DNA of 64,000 nt from Chryseobacterium sp. (lineage in GTDB: Bacteria > Bacteroidota > Bacteroidia > Flavobacteriales > Weeksellaceae), in assembly GCA_027492795.1 (NCBI GenBank), contig JAPUEB010000025.1:1-64000 (forward strand). The letters run 5' to 3'. The notes beneath the pieces were generated by a model. The model made no database searches and was not told the origin of the DNA. It saw only the letters and a program-made list of their open reading frames with translations. Positions within the stretch are counted from its first letter, which is position 1. Each line of letters opens with the position of its first letter. Below, in pieces: positions 38,559 through 42,460 of this stretch. Position numbers and translations under genes: made by a program.

Positions 38559-38693
38559 ATGAATCCAGTACTTTTAAGAAGAATCCTGATGTGGGTTGCA
38601 CCCATCGCAATTGGCTATATCGTAAAAAAATACGAAGAAAAGCAAGCCAAAAAGCAGCAGGAAAAAGCAATGGCAAACCGAGTTGCCCCGTAA
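38559..38693 (+). CDS. 44-residue protein with one hydrophobic helix
   Basis: ATG 38559 to TAA 38693. Hydrophobic N-terminal segment (ILMWVAPIAIGYIV) followed by a highly charged Lys/Glu/Gln tail (KKYEEKQAKKQQEKA). It is framed by a -7 element and a strong terminator, so it is a complete transcription unit. It lies 160 bp before the cell-wall hydrolase cassette but is separated from it by that terminator. Function unknown. Confidence 0.6.
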   Translation: MNPVLLRRILMWVAPIAIGYIVKKYEEKQAKKQQEKAMANRVAP

Positions 38694-38699
38694 ATAAAG

Positions 38700-38726
38700 A
38701 CCTCACTTTTCGTGAGGTTTTTTTTA
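38700..38726 (+). terminator. Strong rho-independent terminator
   Basis: ACCTCAC / GTGAGGT, loop TTTTC, followed by T8 or more, 6 bp after the stop of the 44-aa gene. Confidence 0.85.
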
Positions 38727-38851
38727 TTTTTTGAAAAAAAAAGTATTTTTTCTTCTCTTGTAATGAAATAATTTCTAATTTTGATTGCAACTAACTAATA
38801 ACCATTTTGTTTCGGAATATTTTCTGGAACGAAAACTTAATTTTTTTTATC

Positions 38852-39784
38852 ATGAGTACTATTTCTTTTTCCATTCAGGCTATGAGAAGAATTCTCCGTC
38901 TGAACTATTTTCCGTTTAATGAAAATAATTTACTGGTTTTTGGCATTCGTGGAGCTTTGCCAGAAAATTTAAATACCTGTTCAGAATTTCGTTCACAGCA
39001 CAAACTGCAAGATTCCCAAATAAATTTTTTGAATCCGCGCTGCACATTAGGAATTTTTGACGTTTTGGAGAATAAGATGGCTCTTTTTCCGGGGAGTACC
39101 GTTCCTTTTTTGGAATATATGAAAAAGCAGAAAGCAAGACCCTCCGTTAAGATTTCTAATTCCATTATGAGCGGATATTATTCATATTACTCTAAGGGAA
39201 CCCATAATCCAAGTCCACAAACTGCTCATGCTGCTCTAAGGCTTATGACAAACGTTTTTTTGCGACGAAGCATCAATGATTTGGTTTTCGATAATTCGGA
39301 TACCATTGATGTTTCTAACCCGAACGACAATATCCATGCTGCTTACTGCGATTCTGTGAATGGCAACTATAGCAGTGCCGGTTGCCAAGTAATTGTAGGG
39401 CAACCGAAATGCCTAAGAAGGGGTCAGAACAGTAGCGATACATCTTACTGGAAAAAATTTCACGATATCATTTATTCAAAACCTCAAAATAATTTTGACT
39501 ATATGCTTTTGCGCTATGTAGATGCTGAAGCAGCAAGCATAAAACCTGAAAATAACCTTAATGCAAGGCTTCGCTTTGGCTCAAATGGTTTTAAGGTAAA
39601 AGAACTGCAAGAGAGACTAAGGGATAAAGGATTATACAACTCAACATCGGATGGAAAATTTTTACGAGATACTCTGTTGGCGGTATACCAATTTCAAAAA
39701 ATTGAGTTTGGAATGTCGCAAGCAGACGGTGTTGTAGGAAACAAAACTGCCGAATTACTTCATTTGGAATTGCCTAATTTTTAA
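38852..39784 (+). CDS. Putative cell-wall enzyme: YkuD-like signature plus peptidoglycan-binding domain
   Basis: 310 residues from ATG 38852; the frame is open from TTG 38807. Residues about 238-306 form a PG_binding_1-like domain (LRFGSNGFKVKELQERLRDK ... VVGNKTAELL). The N-terminal region has no domain I can name, but NIHAAYCD (H162) followed by SSAGCQV (S175, C178) has the arrangement of L,D-transpeptidase (YkuD) active sites (H, then S/T-x-G-C). No signal peptide and no transmembrane helix, so export needs another route. The next gene, 12 bp downstream, is a muramidase, which supports a joint role in peptidoglycan attack. Confidence 0.6.
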   Translation: MSTISFSIQAMRRILRLNYFPFNENNLLVFGIRGALPENLNTCSEFRSQHKLQDSQINFLNPRCTLGIFDVLENKMALFPGSTVPFLEYMKKQKARPSVKISNSIMSGYYSYYSKGTHNPSPQTAHAALRLMTNVFLRRSINDLVFDNSDTIDVSNPNDNIHAAYCDSVNGNYSSAGCQVIVGQPKCLRRGQNSSDTSYWKKFHDIIYSKPQNNFDYMLLRYVDAEAASIKPENNLNARLRFGSNGFKVKELQERLRDKGLYNSTSDGKFLRDTLLAVYQFQKIEFGMSQADGVVGNKTAELLHLELPNF

Positions 39785-39796
39785 AGACTATTTATC

Positions 39797-40711
39797 ATGC
39801 CAACACCATTAGAGCCCAGAATTAAAAGGATACAGAAAAAACTCGCTGTATCACAAACAGGAATTTACGATTTGCCAACTTGCAATGAGCTGGAAAAAGC
39901 ACTCGGACTCTTGGTTTCCGACCTTAATCTTTTCGATAAAAAGAAAAATATACAGAGAAAACTCGGATTTACCGGAAGAGACGTTGACGGGATTTTTGGA
40001 GTAAATACCACCACCAGAATAGAAATGTTTCTGGATACTCGTCTTCCAGATTTGCCAGCTGGTGCAACCATGATTGTTTCAAAAAAATCTTTGGACCTTG
40101 TTTTGGAAAGCGAAATTTCTTCAAGAGCCGCCTATAATTCAAGATACAAATTTCCTATTCGTCCAGGTGGAGCAAGCGGAATTACCATCGGAATTGGATA
40201 TGATTTGGGCTACGTTTCTGCCGCCGAATTTGAAAGAGATTGGAAAAATAAAATTTCAGACAGTAAATACAGTAAACTGAAAACCGTTGTTGGAAAAACC
40301 GGAAATGCTGCCCAAAATGCACTAACTGCTTCCATAAAATCTGTTGAGGTGCCTTTTGAAGCCGCTTTGGAAGTTTTTTACACAATTTCTGTTCCCGTTT
40401 ACGCCAAACAAACTTCAAGAATTTATCCAGGTATCGAACTTCTTCCTCCCGATGCTCAAGGAGCGCTTTTATCGTTGGTTTACAATCGTGGAGCGAGTTT
40501 AGACGGCGACCGCAGAATCGAAATGAAGAATATCGCAAATTGGGTTTCAAAAAATAATACCAAAAAAATTGCCGAAGAACTTCGCAGTATGAAAAGGCTT
40601 TGGATAAACGATCCTGCAGTAAGGGGAGTTGCGCTGCGACGGGAAAAAGAAGCTCAACTTGTTGAAAATTCCGGATATTTTGTTCGTCCGCAAGATTATA
40701 TTTTTGCTTAA
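39797..40711 (+). CDS. Pesticin/T4-lysozyme-type muramidase with peptidoglycan-binding domain
   Basis: 304 residues. N-terminal about 85 residues contain PG-binding-like helices (IQRKLGFTGRDVDGIFGVNT). The catalytic part begins near residue 95: E106 in ESEISSR, then SGITIGIGYDLG with T130 and D136. The T-x5-D spacing equals that of pesticin (E178, T201, D207, from memory). Predicted to cut the glycan strand of murein. No signal peptide. Its partner gene ends 12 bp upstream, so translation is probably coupled. No recognisable immunity protein, holin or secretion gene adjoins it. Confidence 0.78.
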   Translation: MPTPLEPRIKRIQKKLAVSQTGIYDLPTCNELEKALGLLVSDLNLFDKKKNIQRKLGFTGRDVDGIFGVNTTTRIEMFLDTRLPDLPAGATMIVSKKSLDLVLESEISSRAAYNSRYKFPIRPGGASGITIGIGYDLGYVSAAEFERDWKNKISDSKYSKLKTVVGKTGNAAQNALTASIKSVEVPFEAALEVFYTISVPVYAKQTSRIYPGIELLPPDAQGALLSLVYNRGASLDGDRRIEMKNIANWVSKNNTKKIAEELRSMKRLWINDPAVRGVALRREKEAQLVENSGYFVRPQDYIFA

Positions 40712-40783: not shown

Positions 40784-42460
40784 ATGAGTTTCCCAACCGA
40801 TTTAGAAATTGCCCAAAGTGCAGACATAAAGCACATTAAAGAAATTGCAGCAAAGATTAATATTGCAGAAGACGATTTGGAATATTATGGTAAATACAAA
40901 GCCAAAATCCCTCTGAAATACATTGATGAAGAAAAAGTAAAAAAAGCGAAACTGATTTTGGTTTCCGCCATCAATCCCACACCTGCAGGAGAGGGAAAAA
41001 CCACTGTTTCCGTAGGACTTTGCGACGGATTGAATAAAATCGGAAAAAAAGCAATGGCAGTTCTTCGTGAACCTTCATTGGGGCCGGTTTTTGGGATTAA
41101 AGGAGGTGCAGCAGGAGGCGGTTATGCGCAAGTAATTCCGATGGTGGATATTAATTTGCACTTCACCGGAGATTTTGCAGCGATTGAAAAAGCCAACAAT
41201 TTACTTTCAGCATTAATCGACAACAATCTACAAAACAAAAAATTCTCTTTAAATATCGACCCAAGAACCATTACTTGGAAACGAGTGATGGATATGAACG
41301 ACAGAGCTTTGCGAAAAATCGTAATCGGTTTGGGAGGTGCTACCAACGGAGTTCCGCGCGAAGATAGCTTCAATATTACTCCAGCTTCCGAAGTGATGGC
41401 GATTCTTTGTATGAGCAAAGATTTTGAGGATTTGAAAAACCGTTTGGGAAATATTTTCGTGGGTTATACTTTTGATAAAAAACCAATTTATGCAAGAGAT
41501 TTGAAAGCGGAAGGAGCGATGGCAATTTTGTTGAGAGACGCCATAAAACCAAATCTTGTACAAACTTTAGAAGGAAATCCTGCCATTCTTCACGGCGGTC
41601 CTTTTGCCAATATTGCGCAAGGAACCAACACGATTATTGCAACAAAAACCGGACTTTCACTTGCTGATTATGTAGTAACGGAAGGTGGTTTCGGAGCAGA
41701 TTTGGGTGCGGAAAAATTTCTTCACATCAAATGTCATTACGCAGGTTTCAAACCGGCTGCAATGGTGATTGTTACCACGGTTCGTGCAATGCGTTATCAC
41801 GGCGGAGCAAAAAAAGGCGAATATGAAAATCCTTATTTTGAGGCCGTAAAAAAAGGCATTGAAAACCTGAAAAAACACATCGAAAATTACAAAAAACTTC
41901 AGCTGAAGCCAGTTGTAGCCATCAATCATTTTGCTACAGACTCGCAAGAGGAAATTGATTTCATTAAAGCAGAATGTGAAAAAATGGGCGTGAAAGCAAT
42001 CCTTGCAGACGAGTTTACGATGGGTGGAGAAGGAATGAAGGAACTTGCAGCAGAAGTTGTAAACGCAGCTGAAAATTACGGAAATGATTTCCAACCTTTG
42101 TATGATGTAAATGATACGGTGGAAAATAAAATCAACACCATTGCAAAGGAAATTTATGGAGCAGATGGTGTGGTTTTTTCTGCAAAAGCGAAAGCCGACA
42201 TCAAAGTTATCAATGATTTAGGACTCGATAAAATGCCTGTTTGTATGGCGAAAACCCAAAAATCCCTTTCAGATGACGAGAAGAAAATTGGAAGACCTAC
42301 CGATTTTAAAGTCACCGTTCGCGAATTTGAATTTGCAGCAGGAGCAGGTTTCATCATCCCAATTCTTGGCGATATGATGAGGATGCCTGGTTTGCCAAAC
42401 ATTCCTGCTTCCGAAAACATGGACATCGACAAAGATGGAAATATTACGGGATTGAGTTAA
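40784..42460 (+). CDS. fhs: Formate--tetrahydrofolate ligase
   Basis: 558 residues, the usual length. Converts formate, ATP and THF into 10-formyl-THF for one-carbon metabolism in the cytoplasm. P-loop-like NPTPAGEGKTTVSVGL near residue 65-80, then LREPSLGPVFGIKGGAAGGGYAQV, and HCHYAGFKPAA-like pattern seen as HIKCHYAGFKPAAMV. Complete and undamaged. It carries its own promoter and is followed by a copy of the interspersed hairpin. Confidence 0.97.
   Translation: MSFPTDLEIAQSADIKHIKEIAAKINIAEDDLEYYGKYKAKIPLKYIDEEKVKKAKLILVSAINPTPAGEGKTTVSVGLCDGLNKIGKKAMAVLREPSLGPVFGIKGGAAGGGYAQVIPMVDINLHFTGDFAAIEKANNLLSALIDNNLQNKKFSLNIDPRTITWKRVMDMNDRALRKIVIGLGGATNGVPREDSFNITPASEVMAILCMSKDFEDLKNRLGNIFVGYTFDKKPIYARDLKAEGAMAILLRDAIKPNLVQTLEGNPAILHGGPFANIAQGTNTIIATKTGLSLADYVVTEGGFGADLGAEKFLHIKCHYAGFKPAAMVIVTTVRAMRYHGGAKKGEYENPYFEAVKKGIENLKKHIENYKKLQLKPVVAINHFATDSQEEIDFIKAECEKMGVKAILADEFTMGGEGMKELAAEVVNAAENYGNDFQPLYDVNDTVENKINTIAKEIYGADGVVFSAKAKADIKVINDLGLDKMPVCMAKTQKSLSDDEKKIGRPTDFKVTVREFEFAAGAGFIIPILGDMMRMPGLPNIPASENMDIDKDGNITGLS

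What the first reader, a model, noticed from the sequence alone, without database searches (positions are those of the whole stretch)
38852..40711. Two-gene cell-wall hydrolase cassette without signal peptides
Gene 1 has a YkuD-like catalytic signature and a PG-binding domain. Gene 2, 12 bp downstream, has a PG-binding-like N-terminus and a pesticin-type muramidase core (E106, T130, D136). Both act on murein, both lack signal peptides, and no holin, phage or secretion gene adjoins. This fits an effector or bacteriocin-like pair delivered by a route not encoded here (for example T6SSiii, an injection particle, or lysis). Seen: domains, spacing, lack of signal peptides. Inferred: antibacterial role. 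No neighbour looks like an immunity protein; the 44-aa membrane protein upstream is separated by a terminator.
Basis: partly seen in the sequence, partly recalled or inferred. Interest (0 to 1): 0.72.

Follow-up and report, generated by a model that had tools for sequence, protein, structure and literature searches.

The report
Orphan phage-type lysin gene pair
Two neighbouring genes make wall-cutting proteins of the kind phages use to burst cells; one is a pesticin-type lysozyme kept by selection at one chromosomal site in related bacteria without any phage around it, the other a poorly known companion found only in this genome.

Summary
Both genes exist as described. Gene 2 (39797-40711) is securely a pesticin/GH24-type muramidase with an N-terminal peptidoglycan-binding-like region. 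Its predicted fold matches pesticin (Z 14.7) and the E106/T130/D136 triad is invariant in 47 homologues. Its relatives are mostly phage endolysins: 265 viral contigs, and one named phage where it sits beside two spanin genes. Endolysins normally lack signal peptides, so that feature needs no effector explanation. Gene 2 is found in this genome and 6 of 148 relatives searched, as one clade under purifying selection. In most carriers it lies downstream of a 44-aa membrane protein gene and upstream of fhs; relatives without it have these two genes side by side (empty site). Gene 1 (38852-39784) has a firm PG-binding C-terminus and an invariant H162...S175-x-G-C178 motif, but YkuD membership was not confirmed. 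It is absent from close relatives and patchy elsewhere; one viral contig carries it. No T6SSiii was found. An extracellular contractile injection system is present in this genome, but 5 of 7 gene-2 carriers lack its sheath gene. Best reading: an accessory, domesticated phage-type lysin cassette whose cytosolic products reach murein when the inner membrane is breached. The effector/bacteriocin reading is possible but unsupported.

The parts
38559..38693 (+). 44-aa single-membrane-segment protein gene; locus marker, not part of the cassette
   Evidence: 19 of 99 relatives encode it, many without gene 2; directly followed by fhs at the empty sites
38696..38722 (+). intrinsic terminator of the 44-aa gene; the same stem is present at the empty site of G026
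38776..38783 (+). TAATTTTG, Bacteroidota-type -7 element (TAnnTTTG), possible promoter of the two genes; the motif is near chance frequency in the window, so weak
38852..39784 (+). gene 1, 310 aa: residues 1-235 catalytic-like region with H162...S175-A-G177-C178 (L,D-transpeptidase-like motif); residues 241-303 PG_binding_1
39797..40711 (+). gene 2, 304 aa: residues 1-90 with PG-binding-like repeats, residues 91-297 pesticin/GH24-type muramidase (E106, T130, D136)
40784..42460 (+). formate-tetrahydrofolate ligase gene (fhs); right-hand border of the insertion site, not part of the cassette
   Evidence: gene name by my reading of the sequence

Best explanation
The stretch is an accessory chromosomal cassette of phage-type lysis enzymes without a phage. 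Shown: gene 2 is an endolysin-family protein (PG-binding-like N-terminus plus pesticin-type muramidase, all catalytic residues kept), present as one clade in seven related genomes, mostly at one site, under purifying selection; gene 1 is a second, unrelated murein-binding protein with a cysteine/histidine motif, added only in this genome. Inferred: gene 2 cuts the glycan strands; gene 1 cuts or exchanges stem peptides; both stay in the cytosol until the inner membrane is breached (a phage or prophage holin, stress lysis, or in relatives perhaps the patatin encoded next door), and then open the wall of the dying cell and, once released, of neighbours. The selected benefit (ordered lysis and release, vesicle formation, or killing of related cells) is not shown.
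For: Gene 2 relatives in 265 viral contigs, up to 50% identity, several spanning residues 9-292 including the N-terminal repeats. In Xanthomonas phage AhaSv the homologue is annotated endolysin, directly before Rz-like and o-spanin genes; a Bradyrhizobium phage also has one. Pesticin and phage endolysins are the best structural matches. The family clade is single (support 100/99) and surrounded by viral lineages on a midpoint-rooted tree. Purifying selection: G004-G052 dN 0.032, dS 1.48, ratio 0.02, like fhs at 0.03. Empty sites in relatives. No hydrophobic N-terminus in any of the seven. Gene 1: homologue in a T4-like viral contig just downstream of a 169-aa protein with a hydrophobic N-terminus; all 11 core homologues match phage family phrog_3000.
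Against: No holin or spanin near the genes, and no phage remnant at the site. Gene 1's phage link rests on one viral contig plus a weak profile match; its core has no relative among 50,697 named phage genomes. More distant proteobacterial gene-2 homologues have N-termini that look like Tat signals by eye, so exported uses of the same core exist. The genome does encode an eCIS. Activity was not tested.
Confidence: 0.6

Rival explanations
1. Injected antibacterial effectors: gene 1 and gene 2 are cargo of a contractile injection system (eCIS here, T6SSiii elsewhere).
For: This genome encodes eCIS proteins: Pvc16_N, sheath, tube, CIS_tube, spike, gp25, baseplate J. Known T6SS effectors include an L,D-transpeptidase-type enzyme, Tlde1a (PMC9638812). 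In G074 and G084 gene 2 is followed by a patatin-like phospholipase gene, another enzyme class used by effectors (my own knowledge).
Against: T6SSiii TssC absent here and in 6 of 7 carriers. eCIS sheath gene absent from 5 of 7 carriers, a lone sheath-like gene in a sixth; no significant association (Fisher p 0.12). Neither gene lies in the eCIS cluster, and no relative of either is found in eight eCIS-region loci. No DUF4157 domain, the mark of the AlgoCIS cargo (PMC8894135). No immunity gene.
Confidence: 0.15
2. Lysis-released bacteriocin-like lysins that kill related cells from outside.
For: The gene-2 core is the toxic domain of a plasmid bacteriocin: Enterobacter pJBIWA005_7, 750 aa, with a lysozyme-inhibitor-type (LprI) gene beside it. 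Prophage lysins acting as bacteriocins are documented in Lactococcus (PMC10377672).
Against: Gene 2 has a PG-binding-like N-terminus instead of a receptor-binding or translocation region, and no inhibitor gene. An outer membrane would block entry in Gram-negative targets.
Confidence: 0.12
3. Anti-phage or altruistic self-lysis module: after membrane damage during phage attack, the stored cytosolic lysins open the cell early.
For: Stored cytosolic lysins, fixed accessory locus, purifying selection; in two relatives the partner is a patatin-like phospholipase that could breach the membrane itself.
Against: No PADLOC defence family fits (only weak, partial matches), no sensor or regulator gene is recognisable, and most carriers have gene 2 without gene 1 or the patatin at the locus.
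Confidence: 0.08
4. Selectively neutral phage relics.
For: Patchy distribution and phage kinship; gene 1 has no close homologue that would allow a selection test.
Against: Gene 2 is intact in all seven genomes with a dN/dS ratio near 0.02 in the only clearly measurable close pair; catalytic residues invariant.
Confidence: 0.05

Closest known systems
Phage endolysins of the pesticin/GH24-like muramidase family (for example Xanthomonas phage AhaSv endolysin)
   Same: Same muramidase core with the E/T/D triad; many viral members have one or more N-terminal PG-binding repeats and no signal peptide
   Different: Here on the chromosome with no phage, holin or spanin genes, kept at one site across related genera
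Pesticin (Y. pestis) and pesticin-core bacteriocins
   Same: Catalytic domain fold (Z 14.7, 3.0 A over 176 residues) and the same order and near-identical spacing of E, T, D
   Different: No receptor-binding or translocation domain, no immunity gene
DLP12 lysis module of E. coli K-12 (domesticated lysis operon that modulates vesicle release; PMC7918800) and SpmX (muramidase-domain protein, solved structure 6h9d)
   Same: Phage-type lysis enzymes kept by the host; the SpmX muramidase domain and DLP12 endolysin are among the structural matches
   Different: DLP12 keeps its holin and spanins; SpmX is membrane-anchored (my own knowledge). Here the enzymes stand alone and are soluble
L,D-transpeptidases (YkuD family) and the T6SS effector Tlde1a
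   Same: Gene 1 has an invariant H-X12-S-x-G-C motif resembling HXX14-17(S/T)HGC as given in PMC9638812
   Different: No YkuD profile match, different spacing and no His before the Gly-Cys; fold not established

Membership tests
Pesticin/GH24-type muramidase (gene 2) | lysozyme-like fold of the pesticin catalytic domain | tested here: met
   AF2 core pLDDT above 90; pesticin best by Foldseek and by VIA-align (Z 14.7)
Pesticin/GH24-type muramidase (gene 2) | E, T, D catalytic residues (pesticin E178, T201, D207) | tested here: met
   E106, T130, D136 invariant in 47 homologues; inactive mutants at the pesticin positions named in the PDB titles
Pesticin/GH24-type muramidase (gene 2) | Pfam Pesticin score above the curated cut-off | tested here: not met
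   22.5 bits against 25.8; orthologues 25.0 and 19.5; divergent member, fold and residues agree
Phage endolysin | relatives encoded in phage lysis cassettes | tested here: met
   265 viral contigs; AhaSv endolysin next to spanins
Phage endolysin | no Sec/Tat signal peptide or lipoprotein signal | tested here: met
   hydropathy check only, no predictor available
Phage endolysin | encoded by a phage or prophage together with a holin | tested here: not met
   no recognisable phage or holin gene adjoining; intact empty sites in relatives
YkuD L,D-transpeptidase (gene 1) | YkuD profile match | tested here: not met
   no match at E<=1; hhalign not significant, with shallow alignments
YkuD L,D-transpeptidase (gene 1) | catalytic Cys with upstream His and S-x-G-C context | tested here: met
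   H162, S175, G177, C178 invariant in 12 sequences; motif level only
YkuD L,D-transpeptidase (gene 1) | L,D-transpeptidase fold | tested here: inconclusive
   AF2 pLDDT 34 with two sequences
T6SSiii effector | T6SSiii in the same genome | tested here: not met
   TssC PF17541 absent from G000 although found in 26 relatives; genome 97% complete
eCIS cargo | eCIS in the same genome | tested here: met
   contig C17, about 79,900 to the contig end
eCIS cargo | encoded in the eCIS cluster or carrying a known cargo domain (DUF4157) | tested here: not met
   the genes are on contig C25, the eCIS on C17; Pfam finds no DUF4157
Bacteriocin of the pesticin/colicin type | receptor-binding/translocation domain and immunity gene | tested here: not met
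   N-terminus resembles PG-binding repeats; flanking ORFs are conserved chromosomal genes

The most novel reading that the evidence does not exclude
A holin-less chromosomal lysis module: a stored cytosolic phage-type muramidase at a fixed site, teamed with an exchangeable partner that attacks either murein peptides (gene 1) or the membrane (patatin-like phospholipase in two relatives), used for programmed self-lysis, for example to abort phage infection or to release eCIS particles or vesicles. Gene 1 would be the founding member of a new cysteine murein-hydrolase family.
Probability: 0.12. Interest if true: 0.7.

Novelty: new variant of a known kind. Interest (0 to 1): 0.38.

Why it matters
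It shows that cytosolic murein hydrolases without signal peptides need not be secreted effectors: kinship with phage endolysins explains the anatomy. A phage-type lysin kept by purifying selection, mostly at one chromosomal site and with changing partners, is a tractable case of host use of a phage lysis enzyme in Bacteroidota. Gene 1 marks an uncharacterised murein-binding family (no Pfam model for its core) found in Bacteroidota and Rhizobium.

Tried and rejected
T6SS: VipB and TssC, rejected for this genome. eCIS: present, but distribution and position do not tie it to the genes. Patatin co-occurrence looked striking at first (all 7 gene-2 genomes have a patatin homologue), but outside G074 and G084 that copy sits elsewhere, in five of them in a conserved neighbourhood also seen in G042, which lacks gene 2, so it is not specific. 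The 44-aa membrane protein as holin or immunity: rejected, it is a conserved family protein also found without gene 2. Insertion repeats: only short two-copy matches, nothing att-like. Single-protein scans of viral contigs with either gene found nothing; alignments were needed. hhalign of gene 1 against YkuD was not significant. The gene-1 core has no PDB match by sequence.

Full report
What is there. The window holds two tandem genes on the + strand: gene 1 (38852-39784, 310 aa) and gene 2 (39797-40711, 304 aa), 12 bp apart. A terminator (38696-38722) separates them from an upstream 44-aa membrane protein gene; downstream lies what I read as fhs. By my reading of the ORF list, the neighbours are chromosomal housekeeping genes, with no phage gene; ARAGORN finds no tRNA in the window.

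Gene 2. Pfam gives Pesticin just below its cut-off. An AF2 model from 47 sequences has a confident core (residues 91-300) and a less certain N-terminus (pLDDT about 50-85). The best structural matches are pesticin (Z 14.7, 3.0 A over 176 residues), followed by phage and prophage endolysins and the SpmX muramidase domain. E106, T130 and D136 are invariant in all 47 and match the order and spacing of pesticin E178, T201 and D207 (24 and 6 residues here, 23 and 6 there).

Relatives of gene 2. A scan of viral contigs with an alignment found 265 contigs encoding relatives, up to 50% identical. Many have N-terminal repeats like those of gene 2, and L158, L211 and L214 align to residues 9-292. In Xanthomonas phage AhaSv the homologue is annotated endolysin and is followed by two spanin genes. 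The same core occurs in a plasmid bacteriocin with an LprI-type inhibitor gene beside it and in proteobacterial proteins whose N-termini look, by eye, like Tat signals. The core is therefore a versatile lysozyme module, and the architecture closest to gene 2 is that of phage endolysins.

Distribution and locus. Gene 2 occurs in this genome and 6 of 148 relatives, in three genera, 58-69% identical to the window copy. The family is inferred to be Weeksellaceae from a public record matching G034. The seven form one clade (100/99), which sits among viral lineages on a midpoint-rooted tree. In G000, G004, G034, G052, G066 and G074 it lies just downstream of the 44-aa gene, and in all of these except G074 just upstream of fhs. 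G084 has the same upstream neighbour as G066 but no detectable 44-aa gene. Five relatives without gene 2 (G021, G025, G026, G029, G047) have the 44-aa gene; in four of them fhs follows directly, while in G029 two other genes lie between; flank alignment for G026 shows the empty site. Gene 2 is therefore an insertion, or an ancestral gene lost many times. Most pairs are saturated at silent sites; in the one clearly measurable close pair (G004-G052) dN is 0.032 and dS 1.48, a ratio near 0.02 against 0.03 for fhs. Selection keeps it.

Changing partners. Gene 1 is found only in this genome among the relatives (two relatives match only in the PG-binding domain). In G074 and G084 gene 2 is instead followed within 14-26 bp by a patatin-like phospholipase gene (Pfam E 1e-13 to 1e-16). 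The companion is therefore exchangeable.

Gene 1. Its C-terminus is a PG_binding_1 domain. Full-length homologues (29-41% identical) occur singly in nine other Bacteroidota genomes of 395 sampled and on two Rhizobium plasmids. In four cases a second domain without a Pfam match is fused on. The invariant residues include H162, S175, G177 and C178, resembling the L,D-transpeptidase motif quoted for Tlde1a (PMC9638812). However, no YkuD profile match, profile alignment or structure supports membership, so 'L,D-transpeptidase-like' is a motif-level inference. One viral contig with T4-like baseplate and terminase genes encodes a homologue shortly after a membrane-protein-like gene, and all 11 core homologues match phage family phrog_3000.

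Delivery. T6SSiii is absent from this genome although the same search rings in 26 relatives. An eCIS is present on another contig. Its sheath is detected in only two of the seven carriers, in one of them as a lone gene, and neither lysin gene lies in it. AlgoCIS cargo, the characterised Bacteroidota case, is encoded in the eCIS cluster and carries DUF4157 (PMC8894135), unlike these proteins.

Mechanism. The simplest account is that both are cytosolic lysis enzymes of phage type. Gene 2 would cut glycan strands, and gene 1 probably stem peptides, once the inner membrane fails. Shown: identity, conservation, locus, absence of export signals by hydropathy. Inferred: enzymatic activity, the need for a membrane breach, and the benefit. 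Precedents for kept or re-used phage lysis enzymes are the DLP12 lysis module (PMC7918800) and bacteriocin-like prophage lysins (PMC10377672).

Verdict. The effector/bacteriocin interpretation is possible but not favoured. Moderate interest: a selected, phage-free endolysin with exchangeable companions, plus a poorly known murein-binding family.

Noticed in passing
G000 contig C17, about 79,900-94,904 (L070 from 9425; L071): Extracellular contractile injection system genes: Pvc16_N protein, sheath, tube proteins, CIS_tube, spike, gp25, baseplate J and more; the contig ends inside the cluster and no cargo gene was recognised.
   Followed up: partly
L015 10540-12051 (G084) and L018 10415-11944 (G074): Patatin-like phospholipase with a predicted membrane-like insert directly after gene 2; a paralogue of a patatin found elsewhere in the other carriers.
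   Followed up: partly
L106 4263-15780 (Rhizobium johnstonii pRlX5): Cluster with a 689-aa gene-1-like fusion, an M15 peptidase with a PG-binding domain, a trypsin/non-specific endonuclease fusion and a GDSL-like lipase.
   Followed up: no
L138 8908-10758, L139 3381-5219, L106 and L107 7995-10064: A C-terminal domain of about 310-375 aa fused to gene-1-like proteins, without any Pfam match; motif E/N-A..TWD.A..TFG..Q suggests a second wall enzyme.
   Followed up: partly
L111 516-3238 (Enterobacter pJBIWA005_7): 6-kb plasmid with a 750-aa pesticin-core bacteriocin and an overlapping LprI-type lysozyme inhibitor gene, probably immunity.
   Followed up: no
L112 4442-6624 (Mesorhizobium pMspAR07b): Gene-2-like protein with a signal-like N-terminus, overlapping a trypsin-like protease gene by 4 nt.
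   Followed up: no
L073 8933-10279 (G084): A lone contractile-sheath-like gene without tube, spike or baseplate genes around it.
   Followed up: no
L135 1543-2459 (G429): Three near-identical small genes in tandem, GIY-YIG-like by eye.
   Followed up: no
L013 12374-19972 (G004): Phage-like genes about 2 kb from gene 2, next to what looks by eye like a thymidylate synthase gene.
   Followed up: no
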